From: a methanogenic archaeon
GTDB taxonomy: Archaea; Thermoplasmatota; Thermoplasmata; Methanomassiliicoccales; Methanomethylophilaceae
Assembly (NCBI GenBank): GCA_902787415.1
Contig: CADAGG010000020.1
Coordinates: forward strand, 1 to 12,197
Direction: 5' to 3'
DNA length: 12,197 bases
Shown: positions 68 through 7,200 of the stretch, in pieces
Layout of the letters: each line of letters opens with the position of its first letter
Position numbering within the stretch: position 1 is the stretch's first letter
The notes under the pieces: generated by a model
What the model was told of the DNA's origin: nothing
The model's input: only the letters and a program-made list of their open reading frames with translations
Databases searched by the model: none
Program-made: the position numbers and the translations under genes

Positions 68-1291
68 TCAGATCAGGTCTTCGAAGCCTTCCACGACCTT
101 GGGGAACTTCTCCTTGATGGCCTTGAGAAGGTTGTAGACGGTGACGTTCTTGATGTCGGCGGTGGACACGAGCTTCATCAGTTCGTTGATGGTCGCATCG
201 TCGAGGGTTGCGAGCCTCTCCTTGGCGAACCAGTTCCTGTAGAGCTTGTCCTCCATCCTGTCACGCCACATCTTCTCGTAGGGCTTGAGTGCCTGCTTGG
301 AGTAGTCGCCGGTCTTGGCGCACTCGGTAAGGACCTTACCTGCGTACATACCGGTCCTGCATGCGTGGCAGATACCTCCGCCGGTGATGGGGTCGATGAT
401 CCTTGCGGCGTCACCGATGAGCAGGATGTTGTCTGCGATGGCTCCGTCCTCGAGTCCGGGGCAGGTGGAAACGAATCCGCCCATCACCTCGACAGCACAG
501 GACTTGTCGAACCTGCTGTCCTTGGCGATGAACTGGTCGAGACACTATTTGGCGAGTCCGGGCCTCTTCTTGGCCTCGGTTCCGATGACCCCGATACCGA
601 CGTTGGCGACTCCGTTGCCCTTGGGGAAGATCCAGATGTATCCTCCGGGTGCCTCGGATCCGATGATGAACTCGCAGTAGTCGGGGGCGACGTCGGCGTT
701 GACCATCCTGTACTGGATGCAGGAGTCGATGTCGCTGAGCTTGAGCTTGGTGTCGATGCCGGCCCACCTTCCCACCTGGGACTCGTATCCGTCGGCTCCG
801 ACGATACAGTCGCAGTAGATCTCGATGGGCTCTCCGTACTCGATGGCCTTGACTCCGATGAGCTTGCCGTTCTCGTCGCGGATGACGTCGGTGGCGGAGG
901 TCCTCATCATGACCTTGGCTCCGGCGGCGATTCCGTCCCTGACGAGGGCCTTGTCGAAGAGGTGCCTCTCGAGGACGTATCCGACCTCGGCACCTGCCTT
1001 GGACTCGTCGAGCTGGAAGGTGGTCCTGTCGGGGGATTTGAGGATCGCTCCCTTCATGTCTCCCCTGATCCAGGTGGGGTCGGGAACGATTCCGACCTCG
1101 TCGAGCCATGCCTTGGAGACTCCCTCGGCGCACCTGAGGGGTGCTCCGACCTCGGCCTTCTTCTCGATGAGAAGGGTGTCGAGTCCTCCCTTGGCGCACC
1201 ATTTGGCGGCCATACCTCCGGCGGGTCCTCCGCCGACGATCAGGATCTGACAGGTGATCCTCTTGATTCCGTTGACGATCTCGGTCTTCAT
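68..1291 (-). CDS. ggr: Geranylgeranyl reductase family FAD enzyme (archaeal lipid saturation), with in-frame amber codon 249
   Basis: Reduces the isoprenoid double bonds of digeranylgeranylglyceryl (phospho)lipids to give saturated archaeal membrane lipids. Seen: 407 codons plus TGA if the TAG at codon 249 is read through; N-terminal FAD Rossmann motif VGGGPAGG (19-26); RCAEGVS (53-59) with the family's conserved cysteine; GYIWIFPKG (217-225); and, beyond the TAG, GDAAR (293-297) with DPITGGG (300-306), the second FAD motif. The C-terminus ending FEDLI resembles, from memory, the Thermoplasma acidophilum enzyme (about 397 residues), so the read-through length is normal. The start ATG overlaps the ferredoxin stop (ATGA) and has an AAGGGGG Shine-Dalgarno match at 1299-1305. 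The TAG falls between FPKG and GDAAR, and a product ending there would lack half the FAD site. Pyrrolysine is the preferred reading; a recent nonsense mutation or sequencing error is the alternative. Confidence 0.93.
545..547 (-). other. In-frame amber (TAG) codon, likely translated (candidate pyrrolysine)
   Basis: Codon context on the minus strand is GCC AAA TAG TGT CTC GAC, giving AK-X-CLDQFI. The frame is unchanged on both sides with no indel, and clear family sequence continues for 158 residues to a TGA. In the T. acidophilum homologue, as I recall it, the matching stretch is LKNYLDRFI, so X sits at a polar, apparently non-catalytic helix position where substitution could be tolerated. 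Lys AAG to TAG would be a single-base change. Decoding as pyrrolysine is inferred; no pyl gene or tRNA lies in this window. Confidence 0.75.
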
Positions 1292-1470
1292 TGCTTGGCC
1301 CCCTTGGGTTCGAGAGTGAGCGCCTGCACGGGGCAGAGCCCGACGCAGATTCCGCACCTGGTGCACTTGTCGCTGAACTCGAGTACGTAGTCGTTGAGGA
1401 AGATCGCGTTCTGGGGGCAGGAGCCCACGCAACCTCCGCAGTGAAGGCATCTGGATTCGTTTACTTTCAT
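1288..1470 (-). CDS. Small 2x[4Fe-4S] ferredoxin, probable electron donor to the lipid enzymes
   Basis: A 60-residue bacterial-type ferredoxin with two classical cluster motifs: C8-x2-C11-x2-C14-x3-C18-P and C36-x2-C39-x2-C42-x3-C46-P. Almost nothing lies outside the two cluster repeats, so its role is electron transfer in the cytoplasm. It sits 5 bases after the tes stop and overlaps the reductase start by 4 bases (ATGA), implying translational coupling to both. Methanosarcina geranylgeranyl reductase is known to need a ferredoxin partner for full saturation, and that precedent plus position makes this the likely donor for the downstream reductase. Supply of electrons to the radical SAM enzyme is a further possibility. 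The start is the ATG at 1468-1470, chosen because a strong AAGGAG lies 8 bases upstream; longer upstream frames run antigenically through tes in the wrong frame and do not look like protein. Confidence 0.94.
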   Translation of the reverse strand: MKVNESRCLHCGGCVGSCPQNAIFLNDYVLEFSDKCTRCGICVGLCPVQALTLEPKGAKQ

Positions 1471-1475
1471 GTTGT

Positions 1476-3128
1476 TCACTCCTTGGGAGCTTCTTCCTCG
1501 TCCTTGGGGACGATGGGGTAGTTCTTCTGGATTTCTCCGACGGTCTGCTCGTATTCCGCCTTGTTCTTCTCCTTCCACTCGGAGAGCGAGATGGAGAACT
1601 TCTTCTCGACTTCCTGACGGAGCTCGATTCCGCTGTTGTAGGCGCAGAAGGGGATGATCCTGCAGTCGGGGGTCACGTAGTGGATGGAGCAGCGCTTGAC
1701 CCTCTCGAAGTCGTAGTTGTAATGGTCCTGGAAGTGCATGGCACCGACGTACATCATTCCCCAGGAGAATCCTGCGAGGGTGTCCTTGGACTTCTTGCTC
1801 ATGATTCCGAGGAGGGTCTTGATGAGACCGTTCTTGGTGAGTCCCTCGGGCATCTTCTCCTCGATGAGGCACTCGAGCAGGAGCTTCCTGACCTTGAGTG
1901 CGGTGAGCTTCTTGAACTTCTTCTTCTCGGCGACGGTTGCGATCTCGTCGAGTCCCTTGACGAACTCCTCGACCTTCAGGAAAGAGGGGAGGGGTACGAC
2001 CTTGCTTCCGTCCTGAGAGATGAAGAAGTAGGTAGCGAGACCGCAGTGGGGGTGGGTCGGGAAGGTGATCTTGTTCTGACCCAGGATGATGGATGCGTAG
2101 TTGGAGATTCCTGCCACGGTGGGTACGGGGTACCAGTCGTCCATGGTGGTGTATCCGGTGTCCTCGGAGATGCGCTTGGCGACATCGGTGAGGGTGATCC
2201 TTCCTTCGGAGACCTCCTCGTTGGTGACCCTTCCGGTGAAGGCGACGGGCTGGTAGTTGACTCCCCTGACGACGTCCCTGTTCTTGATGGCGTACTTCAG
2301 GATGTCTCCGATCTGGTGGTCGTTGAGTCCCATGACGGTGGTGACCACGAGGACGATGGGGGGGCTGTGTCCGGTCTCCTGCCTGAGCTTCCTGCAGTTC
2401 TCGATGACGCCGTCCTTGACGGCCATCATCTTCCTTCCGCGGGACCTCATGTAGATGTCGTCGTTGAGTCCGTCGAACTGGAGGTAGATGGTGTTGAGTC
2501 CGGCCTGTGCGCATTCCTTCAGCTTCTCGTAGTTCTTGGAGAACACGATACCGTTGGTGGCGATCTGGACCTGTGCGAACTTCTTCTCCTTGGCGGCCGC
2601 GATGACCTCCACCAGCTTGGGGTAGACGGTGGGCTCTCCTCCGGAGAACTGGATCGCGGTACAGGCGATGGGCTTCTCGTTGCGGAGGGCGTCCATCATC
2701 TTGCAGACGGTCTCGAAGTCGGGCTCGTAGACGTATCCGCAGTCCATGGCGTTGGCGAAACAGATGGGACATTTCATGTTGCATCTGTTGGTGAGGTCAA
2801 GGTTGGCGAGGGCGGTCGGGGACTTCATGTCGAGTCTCTGGCCGTCGACGATGATGTGGACGTTCTCGCCCTCTGCGAGGGTCTCGTCCATGGAGTTGAA
2901 GAGTCCGGTTCCGTCCTTGGCGAACTTCTCGGCCTCGAGGTACTTCTTGGCGTCAGACCAGTAGATGTCGGTGAACTTTCCGTGCTCGGGGCAGTTCTTC
3001 TCCATGTAGACCTTTCCGTCCTTCTCGAAGATGGTTGCCTCGATGGCTTTGCTGCACTCGGGGCAGAGAGAAGTGGTCTTCTTGGGAAGGCCGACTGCCG
3101 CCGAATAAGGTTTTACCGTTGCGCACAT
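1476..3128 (-). CDS. tes: Radical SAM tetraether lipid synthase (Tes / MJ0619 family)
   Basis: Tes joins the biphytanyl chain ends of two archaeol-type lipids to make tetraether (GDGT) lipids by radical chemistry. Seen in 550 residues: N-terminal metal-binding region C22-x2-C25 with C46-P-E-H49; radical SAM cluster C116-x3-C120-x2-C123 inside LTNRCNMKCPICFAN; FSGGEPT (161-167) for SAM binding; and a C-terminal cysteine set C480, C489, C495 in RCSIHYVTPDCRIIPFCAYN, which with C362 probably holds auxiliary Fe-S clusters. This layout and length match the MJ0619/Tes family, for which tetraether synthesis has been shown in Methanocaldococcus and Sulfolobus. It is the first gene of an operon with a ferredoxin and a lipid saturase, which strengthens the lipid assignment over a generic radical SAM methylase. 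The start ATG lies 23 bases from the edge of a TATA element, so the mRNA is leaderless or has a leader of a few bases. Specific substrate (GDGT or longer-backbone variants) cannot be told. Confidence 0.92.
   Translation of the reverse strand: MCATVKPYSAAVGLPKKTTSLCPECSKAIEATIFEKDGKVYMEKNCPEHGKFTDIYWSDAKKYLEAEKFAKDGTGLFNSMDETLAEGENVHIIVDGQRLDMKSPTALANLDLTNRCNMKCPICFANAMDCGYVYEPDFETVCKMMDALRNEKPIACTAIQFSGGEPTVYPKLVEVIAAAKEKKFAQVQIATNGIVFSKNYEKLKECAQAGLNTIYLQFDGLNDDIYMRSRGRKMMAVKDGVIENCRKLRQETGHSPPIVLVVTTVMGLNDHQIGDILKYAIKNRDVVRGVNYQPVAFTGRVTNEEVSEGRITLTDVAKRISEDTGYTTMDDWYPVPTVAGISNYASIILGQNKITFPTHPHCGLATYFFISQDGSKVVPLPSFLKVEEFVKGLDEIATVAEKKKFKKLTALKVRKLLLECLIEEKMPEGLTKNGLIKTLLGIMSKKSKDTLAGFSWGMMYVGAMHFQDHYNYDFERVKRCSIHYVTPDCRIIPFCAYNSGIELRQEVEKKFSISLSEWKEKNKAEYEQTVGEIQKNYPIVPKDEEEAPKE
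1479..1484 (-). promoter_or_regulatory. Shine-Dalgarno AAGGAG for the ferredoxin
   Basis: AAGGAG on the minus strand, 8 bases before the ferredoxin ATG. It is formed by the last two sense codons of tes (Lys-Glu), immediately before its TGA, so a ribosome finishing tes is positioned over the ferredoxin start. It decides the ferredoxin start and supports operon-style coupling. Confidence 0.75.
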
Positions 3129-3210: not shown

Positions 3211-3218
3211 CTTATAAT
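3211..3218 (+). promoter_or_regulatory. Proximal TATA-like box of the large exported protein
   Basis: CTTATAAT begins 30 bases before the ATG at 3241, nearly the same geometry as the TATA-like box and ATG of the NOG1 gene (29 bases). This predicts a leaderless transcript starting at 3241 and argues against the in-frame ATG at 3217, which would lie inside the box. Confidence 0.45.
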
Positions 3219-3240
3219 GGGCTTTCGCAGAAGAACGGTC

Positions 3241-6200
3241 ATGAATCACAGGACCTTGGGAAAGGGACGTTCTGGCAGCATGCCGTTCGCGGTCATAGCC
3301 GTCACACTGCTGGTGGTCTCCTCCGCCTACTGCGCCGCGGCGGCCTCCGTCAGACAGTCCGAGGACGGGGACGGCCACGGCATGGACGACCTCTCCTCCC
3401 ACGGGATCTCCGCCGAGGAGCTGAGATCGACCGTGGAGGCGGAGCTCGGGAGGATGCTCTTCGACGTGTGCGCCACCCCCTCCTGCGGATCGCTCGACGA
3501 CCGCGGCAAGGAGTTCCGCAGCACGGCCTGCAGGTGGCTGGAACTTCAGTTCCCCATGCTCTGCAGGGGCATCACCGTCACCATGACCGACTACACCCTC
3601 GACCTGAGCGTGGAGAAGCTCAGGACGGAGGGCGGCACCGCCGAGGGCTACATCCCGTCGTTCCTCAGGGCCACGGGCTCCATCACGGCGGTCTTCGAAT
3701 CGGATGCCGGGAAGGACACCCGGACCGTCCCCTTCTCGACTGACGGCAGCTGCGCCCTCCCGCTGACGGCGGAGATGGGGTCGCTCTTCGAGAACGCCGT
3801 CTCGGGCGACGGCACCCTCCTCTCGCAGATGATGGATTATCAGCTGACATCGCTGGCACAGTACAGGGTGATCAACGGTTACGGGGCATTCTCGAGATAC
3901 GGGGAGAAGGGCACCGAGTCGATCCTCACCGAGGCAGATGTGGAGAAGGCCTACCGCAACTCCCTCGCCGCCCTCAGCTGCATCTACTTCAGGGACGGGG
4001 ACGGCGGGATGGTCGGCATGGTGGACCTGGCCTCCCGGCTCGTCTCCGACGACGGGAGGATCACCGTGGACCTCAACTCGGTGTACGCGCAGGCGCTGTA
4101 CTCCGAGATGGACGGCATCGTCGGGAAGTGGTTCGACTACTTCCTCGGCAACTCCCTGCTGAATGTCTGCGATTACATCTCGGATACGCTGAAGAACGCC
4201 TGGGACTCCCTGACCTCGTTCGTCACCGGCCGCAACAACTTCTCGGCGGAGCCCTATCTCCGGTCGGTCATCGGCGATGCCTACACAGGCCTCCGCACCG
4301 GGCAGAGCTTCGCGTTCACCGTGACCGGCCCTTCGGGAGAAGAGATCGCCTACACGGTGCCCTATCCCTCCGTGGACCTCTACGGCTCGGACGTCATCAG
4401 CAACTTCAAGAGCAACTACCGCAGCAACACCAACGCGGTCAGGGAATGGATCGCCGGGATCGTCAACAGCGCCATAATCAAGGTGGCCAACGGCAGGGGC
4501 ATGGGGACCGTGACCCTGAGCGTAAGCGGGACGGAATCCTTCGCCGACGCCCTCGCGGGTGCGGTGGAGGCCGCCCTCCGCGGGAACACCGAATCGTTCG
4601 AGAGCGTGACCCGCGGGATGATGGAATCGGGCATGATTCCCGACCAGTTCTACTCCGCCATCTACTCCGACATCGACAGCCACAAGGACTCCCTCTTCAC
4701 CTACGGCAGAGGGGCCTTCGAGGCCATGGTGAGGGACCGCATCATCGATTCCGTCATCAGGGATTTCTCGGAGCCTGGGTCTTCGATGTCGCGCTCGGAT
4801 GCGGCGGCACTGATCTCCGATTCGTTCATGGAGGAGGGGAACTACCGCGTCTACACCGGGTACAGGTCCGAGGTGGACGGGCTCATGCAGACCCTCTCCG
4901 CTCTCAGGGAGAAGGAGGAGTCCGGCAGCACGGTCATCCGCAAGGCCTGCACCGCCATGCTCTCGGCGGGGTTCTTCGCGCTCGACTGCGCCGCCGACAT
5001 ACGCAAGGTGGCCCTCGGCATGTGCACGGAGTTCAGGACCAACATGGGCATCAACCCCGAGGCCGCCCCCGCGGAACTGGGGTTCGACAGGGACTTCACG
5101 CTGACCTCCGGGGACCGCACCTACACCGAGAGGCTGACCGTGGCCACCTCGTCCTCCCCCTCGGTGTCGGTGGGCTTCGCCAACGGCCTCAGCACCCACT
5201 TCACCGGCTTCGGCGAGAGCCGCGACGCACCGTTCTGCACCGTGTTCCCGGTCACCCTGGAGGACCGTCTCCGCGTGGACGTCTCCTCCGCGGGGAGCCT
5301 GATGCAGGCCCTCGGCCTCTCGGATTCGGTCTACTCCGACACCGTCGAGGTGCGCATCGGCATAGAGGTGGCGGTGGTCTCCGGCTGGGGCCTCTCCGGC
5401 GTGGACTACCCCGCCAGCACCGACGTCCTCCGCGACCTCTACAACCTGCTGCTCAAGGCCCTGGAGCCCCTCCTGGAACCGCTGAGGGAGCTGCTCTCCA
5501 TGGCGGAGGACCTCCTGGGCGTGCTGTCCGAGGCGATAATGACCGTCTCCCAGTACGTCAACGAGATCATCGAGAAGGTCTACGACAGGATCTTCGGGCC
5601 GCTGGAAAAGCTCTCCGGATACGTGTCCGAGACCCTCACCGTGGCGTTCTGCGACGCCCTGGTGTCGCTCATCGACGGGGCCCAGGCCATCATAGACGTG
5701 TCCGCCGTCAGCCAGATCGTGGGATTCACCTACATGGGCTACACCCTCAAGTTCACGTTCAACCTGAAGACCCTGGAGAATTACACGAAGTACCTGGTGA
5801 AGGCCGAGTTCTCGGGCAACGTGAGCGGGGTGGAGGTGAACGCCTTCCTCAACGTGAAGACCAAGGGGGAGGAGAAGAGGGTCCCCTGCATCACCGGCGG
5901 TTTCAATCTGAAGGGCGACGGATGGGACCTCTCGGCGGAGATAGATCCCACCATGGCGGTGAACAAGCACATCATGTCCCTGAGCGGGACCGTCAAGGGG
6001 ATCAGGATCGACGCGGTGCTCCCCGAGGCGGTGCAGTACAACGAGGTCGGCATAGCGCTCTCCGACTTCCCCGGGATCGCGCAGATCCTCTCGAACATCC
6101 CCTCCCCCATCGCCGGCACCAAGATAGAGCTCGACGCGGGACTCTCGCTGAAGTACAACTTCCCGCTGGTCAGCGGGGTGCTCGTCAACGAGTTCGAGCC

Positions 6201-7200
6201 GAACCCCGAGGGCACCGACAAGGACCGCGAATGGGCGGAGATCCTCAACCTCACGGGCTCCGCCGTGGACCTGAACGATTGGACGATAACCACCTCGAAG
6301 AAGAAGGTCCACATCATCAAGGACCTCGAGCTCGCCCCCGGCGAGAGAGCCGTGATCTACTTCCCGGGGACCTTCCTGGTGAACTCCAAGGAGTACCTGA
6401 TACTGAAAGACCCAGACGGTGTGGAGATCGACCGTTCGGCAACCATGACCGACAGCCGCAACGACGGCGCCACATGTCAGCGCGCCATGGACGGCTCCAC
6501 CGACTGGTCGCTCATGGAGGGCACCGAGGACGCGGCCAACAAGGGCGGTCTGCTGGGGACCGACGGCATCCTCCGGAGCGTGGTGGTCGACGTGGTGAAG
6601 AGGGCTGCCGTCAAGGCCATGACCGAGATGAGGCACGTCTATTCCTCCGAGGCCCTCGCCGAGCTCATCTCCAGGACCGTGAGGTATGCGGTCGACGACG
6701 GCATCAACCGCCTGTCCTCCTGCCTGGTCGAAGGCTCCGCCTACGTCTCGGTGGACTTCACCGACCTGGTGTCGGCGAACCGCACCGGGTTCAGGGTGTA
6801 CCTGGCGGCGGACAAGGAACTGGTCGGGGACGTGCTGAAGTTCCTCCTGGGGAAGATCGAGGCCCTGCTCCTGGGCATCGGGGACCCCTACAACATAGAC
6901 CTCGGGAAGGTGCTGTACGAGGATGTGTTCCTGGGCGTCACGGCATACGGCGGAATCAAGCTCCCGAAGATGCTGAACGGTAACAAGGAATTCGGAGGGA
7001 AGGTCCTGCTGGGCGTCGACATAGCCGCCAACATCGCCGCTCTCGGCGGACTGCTGGGTCACGACCTGGGCACCCCCAAGGTGAAGGCCCGGATCGGCAT
7101 CACCAACTGCCCCTACGAGGTCATTCCCAAGGCCATGGGCGTGAAGAAGAACATGACCTACGACCTCTGGCTGCTGAGCATGACCTTCACGCCCGCATGA
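3241..7200 (+). CDS. Very large exported/surface protein with N-terminal hydrophobic segment and lamin-tail-like domain
   Basis: Function not recognised. Seen in 1319 residues (1327 from the alternative ATG at 3217): a positively charged start, then one hydrophobic segment (about 14-37, SMPFAVIAVTLLVVSSAYC followed by AAAA) acting as signal peptide or membrane anchor; a long mixed region; a leucine-rich amphipathic helical stretch (about 730-800); a beta-rich region; and an LTD-like domain (about 979-1101) starting VNEFEPNPEG with EWAEILNLTG, DLNDWTI and ELAPGERAVIYFPG. No C-terminal membrane helix or sorting signal is apparent. The N-terminal PFAVIAVTLLV pattern recalls haloarchaeal surface proteins associated with pilus-like loci, a weak inference. 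No Shine-Dalgarno precedes either ATG; the TATA spacing favours 3241. Glycine codons are mostly GGC/GGG, unlike the GGA/GGT mix of neighbouring housekeeping genes. It is probably extracellular, in cell-surface structure or adhesion. Confidence 0.9.
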   Translation: MNHRTLGKGRSGSMPFAVIAVTLLVVSSAYCAAAASVRQSEDGDGHGMDDLSSHGISAEELRSTVEAELGRMLFDVCATPSCGSLDDRGKEFRSTACRWLELQFPMLCRGITVTMTDYTLDLSVEKLRTEGGTAEGYIPSFLRATGSITAVFESDAGKDTRTVPFSTDGSCALPLTAEMGSLFENAVSGDGTLLSQMMDYQLTSLAQYRVINGYGAFSRYGEKGTESILTEADVEKAYRNSLAALSCIYFRDGDGGMVGMVDLASRLVSDDGRITVDLNSVYAQALYSEMDGIVGKWFDYFLGNSLLNVCDYISDTLKNAWDSLTSFVTGRNNFSAEPYLRSVIGDAYTGLRTGQSFAFTVTGPSGEEIAYTVPYPSVDLYGSDVISNFKSNYRSNTNAVREWIAGIVNSAIIKVANGRGMGTVTLSVSGTESFADALAGAVEAALRGNTESFESVTRGMMESGMIPDQFYSAIYSDIDSHKDSLFTYGRGAFEAMVRDRIIDSVIRDFSEPGSSMSRSDAAALISDSFMEEGNYRVYTGYRSEVDGLMQTLSALREKEESGSTVIRKACTAMLSAGFFALDCAADIRKVALGMCTEFRTNMGINPEAAPAELGFDRDFTLTSGDRTYTERLTVATSSSPSVSVGFANGLSTHFTGFGESRDAPFCTVFPVTLEDRLRVDVSSAGSLMQALGLSDSVYSDTVEVRIGIEVAVVSGWGLSGVDYPASTDVLRDLYNLLLKALEPLLEPLRELLSMAEDLLGVLSEAIMTVSQYVNEIIEKVYDRIFGPLEKLSGYVSETLTVAFCDALVSLIDGAQAIIDVSAVSQIVGFTYMGYTLKFTFNLKTLENYTKYLVKAEFSGNVSGVEVNAFLNVKTKGEEKRVPCITGGFNLKGDGWDLSAEIDPTMAVNKHIMSLSGTVKGIRIDAVLPEAVQYNEVGIALSDFPGIAQILSNIPSPIAGTKIELDAGLSLKYNFPLVSGVLVNEFEPNPEGTDKDREWAEILNLTGSAVDLNDWTITTSKKKVHIIKDLELAPGERAVIYFPGTFLVNSKEYLILKDPDGVEIDRSATMTDSRNDGATCQRAMDGSTDWSLMEGTEDAANKGGLLGTDGILRSVVVDVVKRAAVKAMTEMRHVYSSEALAELISRTVRYAVDDGINRLSSCLVEGSAYVSVDFTDLVSANRTGFRVYLAADKELVGDVLKFLLGKIEALLLGIGDPYNIDLGKVLYEDVFLGVTAYGGIKLPKMLNGNKEFGGKVLLGVDIAANIAALGGLLGHDLGTPKVKARIGITNCPYEVIPKAMGVKKNMTYDLWLLSMTFTPA
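6175..6543 (+). other. Lamin-tail-like (LTD) domain within the exported protein
   Basis: The stretch has the order of features typical of prokaryotic LTDs: (V/I)NE(F/V)EPNP, then EW-E-L-N, then a V-DL--W-(I/L) strand, a helix-free L-APGE segment before a hydrophobic strand, EYLILKDPDG, and a late DGAT--R--DGS-DW block. In secreted prokaryotic proteins such Ig-like domains usually act as binding modules next to enzymes or surface repeats. Here it is embedded, with about 220 residues following it, rather than terminal. Confidence 0.75.

What the first reader, a model, noticed from the sequence alone, without database searches (positions are those of the whole stretch)
545..547. Amber codon read through inside an ether-lipid reductase: candidate pyrrolysine outside methylamine metabolism
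Seen: TAG at codon 249 of the geranylgeranyl reductase, no frame change, and 158 further codons of conserved sequence including the GDAAR/DPITGGG FAD motif and the family's normal C-terminus. Known: Methanomassiliicoccales and some other methanogens decode TAG as pyrrolysine, classically in methylamine methyltransferases. Inferred: the residue is Pyl, placed at a non-catalytic helix position, so amber is being used as a sense codon in a core membrane-lipid enzyme. A corollary worth testing is that without Pyl the enzyme would be truncated before half its FAD site, tying lipid saturation to pyrrolysine supply.
Basis: partly seen in the sequence, partly recalled or inferred. Interest (0 to 1): 0.85.

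Follow-up and report, generated by a model that had tools for sequence, protein, structure and literature searches.

The report
Pyrrolysine codon in archaeal lipid enzyme
A methanogen's membrane-lipid enzyme gene carries an in-frame TAG that its cell almost certainly reads as pyrrolysine rather than as a stop; this is real, but the same thing was already reported in 2016 for a close relative.

Summary
Confirmed: codon 249 of a 407-residue geranylgeranyl reductase (68-1291, - strand) is TAG, and 158 conserved codons follow. The same TAG is in two other assemblies of the genus, one closed: 3 of the 93 family genomes whose match covers the codon. Sequence after the TAG is under purifying selection (dN/dS 0.055-0.085). 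The genome has pylS, pylB, pylC, pylD, a pylT candidate and four methylamine methyltransferase genes with in-frame TAG. In a 24% genome sample, 6 of 220 called genes ended at TAG, and all six read on: those four, this gene, a citrate synthase. Two relatives without PylS over cut-off ended 12 of 100 genes at TAG. So TAG is best read as pyrrolysine, at a variable helix position, probably tolerated rather than catalytic. It is not new: the ISO4-H5 genome paper (PMC5011839, passages) lists two amber-containing geranylgeranyl reductase genes, and PMC4153887 (passages) describes similar cases in a human-gut relative and suggests that amber in a major gene could make pyrrolysine essential. I have no protein evidence for this gene.

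The parts
545..547 (-). in-frame TAG, codon 249, read as pyrrolysine (inferred)
   Evidence: same TAG in G006 and G012
68..1291 (-). geranylgeranyl reductase family gene, 407 residues, ATG start, TGA stop
   Evidence: TIGR02032, 193 bits over cut-off 158.8; PF22578; 3oz2
374..415 (-). codons 293-306, GDAARIIDPITGGG flavin motif, downstream of the TAG
   Evidence: nine of the fourteen residues invariant in the 20-sequence alignment
1288..1470 (-). small ferredoxin-like gene (60 residues, two CxxCxxCxxxCP motifs), its TGA overlapping the reductase's ATG
   Evidence: sequence; ferredoxin models match but none of the 25 shown reaches its cut-off
1476..3128 (-). tetraether lipid synthase Tes (radical SAM), first gene of the probable lipid operon
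   Evidence: NF045702, 566.1 bits over cut-off 450

Best explanation
The TAG is translated as pyrrolysine by the organism's PylRS/tRNA-Pyl system, giving one full-length 407-residue geranylgeranyl reductase that saturates archaeal membrane lipids. In this clade TAG is close to, or fully, a sense codon, so a single-base change (for example from AAG, the codon of the nearest sense-codon relative) at a variable helix position was tolerated and kept. Shown: the frame, its conservation and selection, the pyl genes, and no gene that clearly stops at TAG in the sample of this genome. Inferred: insertion of Pyl, the full-length protein, its exact substrate, and the tolerated (non-catalytic) role of the residue.
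For: Same TAG in 3 of the 93 (of 102) family genomes whose match covers codon 249. dN/dS after the TAG 0.085, 0.078, 0.055 against 0.071, 0.128, 0.094 before it for the three pairs. PylS 274.9 bits over cut-off 178.15; PylB, PylC, PylD over NCBIfam cut-offs; a pylT candidate with anticodon CTA between mtmB and pylS, its core repeated in G006 and G012. Both mtmB genes on that contig carry TAG. In 298,654 bases of the source genome, 6 of 220 called genes end at TAG and all six continue with coding-like sequence: mtmB twice, mtbB, mttB, citrate synthase, this gene. In G018 and G019, with no PylS match over cut-off, 7 of 55 and 5 of 45 end at TAG. As called, 6 of 220 against 12 of 100 gives Fisher p 0.0025; setting the six aside as read-through, 0 of 214 against 12 of 100 gives 7e-7. 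Codon 249 in the 60 of 62 named orthologs that cover it: Y 29, K 10, M 5, R 5, T 3, E 2, A 2, H, V, D 1 each, TAG 1; 36 of 60 are one base from TAG. The paralog site shows the step itself: TAG in G012, GAG in G000 and G004, CAG in G006.
Against: No protein or ribosome data. ARAGORN found no tRNA in the three pyl loci, and the minimum-energy fold of the pylT candidate is not a cloverleaf and is no more stable than shuffles (z -0.37). Keeping the TAG in three genomes is weak evidence alone, given synonymous distances of 0.13-0.35. The 0 of 214 test removes cases after looking at them, and 4 of the 12 control TAG genes also have extensions with positive coding scores (0.10-0.38). In the G012 sample, which has PylS, 3 of 96 called genes end at TAG without a convincing extension, though their own coding scores are low (0.13-0.18). 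Residue 250, Y in 57 of 60 orthologs, is C in the TAG clade, which is unexplained and might mean that the site is not simply neutral. The sample is 24% of a draft genome.
Confidence: 0.93

Rival explanations
1. The TAG is a real stop: a pseudogene, or a truncated 248-residue protein.
For: By the standard code the frame stops there; the archaeal release factor reads TAG (recalled). The genome has two other reductase-like genes without TAG, so a loss might be bearable.
Against: The downstream part is as constrained as the upstream part; the break would fall inside the catalytic domain; the TAG is shared by three genomes.
Confidence: 0.03
2. Sequencing or assembly error.
For: The genome is a 166-contig draft.
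Against: Same TAG in G006 and in closed G012, which differs from ISO4-H5 in size by one base; the ISO4-H5 paper reports amber codons in two such genes.
Confidence: 0.01
3. Two polypeptides: the second half starts anew downstream and the halves associate.
For: A GTG at 487-485 opens a 139-residue frame. One same-genus draft, G013, has this gene in two overlapping frames broken near residues 223-235, which may be an assembly error or a real split.
Against: No ATG, GTG or TTG in frame in the first 19 codons after the TAG; the split lies inside the catalytic domain; the 19 relatives put into the alignment were single frames, though they were chosen as such.
Confidence: 0.01
4. TAG is read as another amino acid by a different suppressor tRNA.
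For: The tRNA content of the whole genome was not surveyed.
Against: The genome has the Pyl enzymes and TAG-bearing mtmB, mtbB and mttB.
Confidence: 0.02

Closest known systems
Amber-containing geranylgeranyl reductase genes AR505_1433 and AR505_1618 of methanogenic archaeon ISO4-H5 (PMC5011839, 2016; passages seen)
   Same: G012 (1,937,883 bases) is taken as ISO4-H5 (1,937,882). Both G012 matches shown, of 3 counted, carry one TAG, and one is at the same codon as here.
   Different: The window comes from another species-level genome, in which the second paralog has GAG instead of TAG. That one of the two locus tags is this ortholog is inferred; the tags were not matched.
Pyl candidates outside methylamine enzymes in Ca. 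Methanomethylophilus alvus, e.g. digeranylgeranylglyceryl phosphate synthase (PMC4153887, 2014; passages seen)
   Same: Amber inside a core lipid gene of the same order; few TAG stops (1.6%); argument that Pyl becomes essential.
   Different: Another lipid enzyme and another species.
Methylamine methyltransferases MtmB, MtbB, MttB
   Same: In-frame TAG read by the same system; present with TAG in this genome.
   Different: There Pyl is catalytic and its site conserved (recalled); here the site is variable across relatives.
Thermoplasma acidophilum digeranylgeranylglycerophospholipid reductase, 3oz2
   Different: An ordinary residue at the site, N aligned with 249 and Y with 250.

Membership tests
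Pyrrolysine-decoding genes | genome encodes PylS | tested here: met
   G000:C17:8194-8907, 274.9 bits, cut-off 178.15
Pyrrolysine-decoding genes | genome encodes PylB, PylC, PylD | tested here: met
   401.8, 339, 212.1 bits, all over cut-offs
Pyrrolysine-decoding genes | genome encodes tRNA-Pyl with anticodon CUA | tested here: inconclusive
   candidate with CTA anticodon between mtmB and pylS, core repeated in two relatives; ARAGORN silent, fold not a cloverleaf
Pyrrolysine-decoding genes | in-frame TAG with conserved sequence after it | tested here: met
Pyrrolysine-decoding genes | Pyl residue shown in the protein | not testable with these tools
   needs mass spectrometry
Geranylgeranyl reductase superfamily (TIGR02032, PF22578) | score over curated cut-off | tested here: met
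   193 over 158.8 bits; 101 over 27 bits
NF041160 digeranylgeranylglycerophospholipid reductase (equivalog) | score over curated cut-off of 780 bits | tested here: not met
   385.3 bits over residues 13-407; so it is filed only in the wider family, and its substrate is inferred from the gene's place beside Tes

The most novel reading that the evidence does not exclude
In this clade TAG has ceased to be a stop codon altogether and is a plain sense codon for pyrrolysine; membrane-lipid saturation then depends on Pyl supply, as would one of the genome's citrate synthases, and Pyl at 249 together with Cys at 250 has taken over the role of the near-invariant aromatic at 250 in the reductase.
Probability: 0.3. 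Interest if true: 0.55.

Novelty: already known. Interest (0 to 1): 0.3.

Why it matters
It is a clean, checkable example of a catalytic amino acid's codon turning up in housekeeping genes, where cells may come to need it without any chemical reason. The example itself is in print; what this adds is the shared codon in three genomes, the selection measurement, the contrast in stop-codon use with relatives that lack PylS, and a one-base TAG/GAG/CAG series at the paralog's site.

Tried and rejected
A structured mRNA element after the TAG: the 106-base fold is not exceptional (z -0.98). A tRNA in the window: ARAGORN finds none.

Other reductase matches flagged with one TAG (G012, G033, G020): in G020 (no PylS over cut-off) the TAG lies before the likely start, so it is not internal; in G033 (PylS present) one TAG is internal, where relatives have Q, besides others before the likely start; in G012 it is internal.

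Stop-codon counts: (198 genes) and one search used a codon model first trained on genes of G000; it called only 1 gene in G019 and 66 in G012, so the self-trained one search replaced both for comparison. For G000 all three gave the same 6 TAG genes. With TAG read as sense, one search also showed 7 more TAGs in 6 frames, all within the first 31 codons; the sequence before them did not look coding, except one borderline case (L138, 0.12), so I took them as upstream of the true starts.

Alignment slip: the row L079 is shifted by a gap; its K at 249 is probably Y. It stays in the counts as K.

Papers: a 2025 Science paper on an archaeal code with all TAG codons as pyrrolysine is recalled by me and was not seen; the searches did not list it, the library holding only open-licence papers. 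In PMC3941956 'geranylgeranyl' occurs 0 times; PMC13044021 and PMC11363022 were searched for other terms only.

Full report

Is the TAG real? Among 61 genomes searched, all have a match, and three carry the TAG in this gene: G000 itself, G006 and G012. Across the 102 family genomes searched, 93 have a match covering codon 249 by my count of the listing, and the same 3 carry TAG there. The other nine have a partial match that misses the codon (G004, G009, G077) or no close match (G073, G081, G097, G103, G107, G111). Within the genus it is 3 of the 12 covering genomes out of 14. One of the twelve, G013, has the gene in two overlapping frames broken near residues 223-235. G006 corresponds to RUG10898 by contig number and length. 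G012 is a closed contig of 1,937,883 bases; ISO4-H5 has 1,937,882, so I take it as that organism.

Is the part after the TAG used? For the three pairs, dN/dS after the TAG is 0.085, 0.078 and 0.055, against 0.071, 0.128 and 0.094 before it. The TAG lies inside the catalytic domain, and invariant residues of the flavin motif lie after it. Retention of the TAG itself over these short distances is weak evidence; the conserved downstream frame is the strong evidence.

Does the cell decode TAG? Contig C17 of the source genome holds pylS, pylB, pylC and pylD in a row, two mtmB genes with internal TAG, and between mtmB and pylS a pylT candidate with anticodon CTA whose core recurs in G006 and G012. 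ARAGORN does not report it and a plain fold does not give a cloverleaf; PMC3941956 (passages) describes tRNA-Pyl of this order as unusually condensed. In 298,654 bases of the genome (22 stretches, about 24%), 220 genes were called by codon usage: 196 end in TGA, 18 in TAA, 6 in TAG. All six TAG cases continue for 112-335 codons of coding-like sequence: dimethylamine and trimethylamine methyltransferases and a citrate synthase, two mtmB and this gene. In two relatives without PylS over cut-off, 7 of 55 and 5 of 45 genes end at TAG; 4 of those 12 have extensions with positive coding scores, 0.10 to 0.38. As called, 6 of 220 against 12 of 100 gives p 0.0025; with the six set aside, 0 of 214 against 12 of 100 gives 7e-7. 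In the G012 sample, 3 of 96 end at TAG, all weakly supported genes, so I do not claim that TAG never stops translation in the genus.

What does the residue do? In the 60 of 62 named orthologs covering the codon it is Y 29, K 10, M 5, R 5, T 3, E 2, A 2, H, V and D one each, and TAG once (one K, L079, is probably a misaligned Y). The nearest sense-codon relatives have AAG, AGG or AAA. The model puts 249 in a helix, 246-257 (mean confidence 87.0, about 91 in the block of residues 241-250; Pyl modelled as lysine). So the site is variable, and TAG is one base from 36 of the 60 codons. The paralog gives the same picture: at one site TAG in G012, GAG in G000 and G004, CAG in G006. The citrate synthase TAG at codon 122 of the called frame is shared by G000 and G012 (20 synonymous and 1 other codon differences), where the other matches covering it have K, R, H, S or T. 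I read this as tolerated one-base changes in a genome where TAG is sense. One observation does not fit neatly: the neighbouring residue is Y in 57 of 60 orthologs but C in the TAG clade. Against the idea that lipid saturation hangs on this codon, the genome has two more reductase-like genes without TAG, about 30% identical; whether they can stand in is unknown. Likewise a second citrate synthase without TAG is present in G012, and in two pieces in G000.

What is known. [quoted passage not shown] PMC4153887 (passages) reports 16 Pyl candidates besides the methyltransferases in M. alvus, including a lipid-synthesis enzyme, a TAG stop frequency of 1.6%, and the proposal that an amber codon in a gene of major function might make the Pyl cassette essential. 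The passages I saw give no protein evidence. The finding is therefore correct, and already described in kind and, by inference, in the same gene of a sister species.

Noticed in passing
L141:352-1722 (G000:C22): Citrate synthase gene with in-frame TAG at codon 122 of the called frame, shared with G012; other matches have K, R, H, S or T there. Not among the examples named in the ISO4-H5 passage I saw.
   Followed up: partly
L142 (G033:C7:56000-58800): A reductase paralog in another genus of the family has an internal TAG where relatives have Q, so such TAG gains seem to recur.
   Followed up: partly
542-544: Residue 250, right after the TAG, is C in the TAG clade but Y in 57 of 60 orthologs.
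   Followed up: no
68-1291: Synonymous divergence of G012 from the other two is about twice as high after the TAG as before it (0.30 and 0.35 against 0.13 and 0.17; Fisher p 0.008 and 0.014); perhaps recombination.
   Followed up: no
G013:C47:25720-26918: In a same-genus draft the orthologous gene lies in two overlapping frames broken near residues 223-235; assembly error or a real frameshift, not examined.
   Followed up: no
3217-7200: 1327-residue frame with no NCBIfam match and only a lamin-tail domain at 34.0 bits, just under Pfam's 34.3 cut-off.
   Followed up: no
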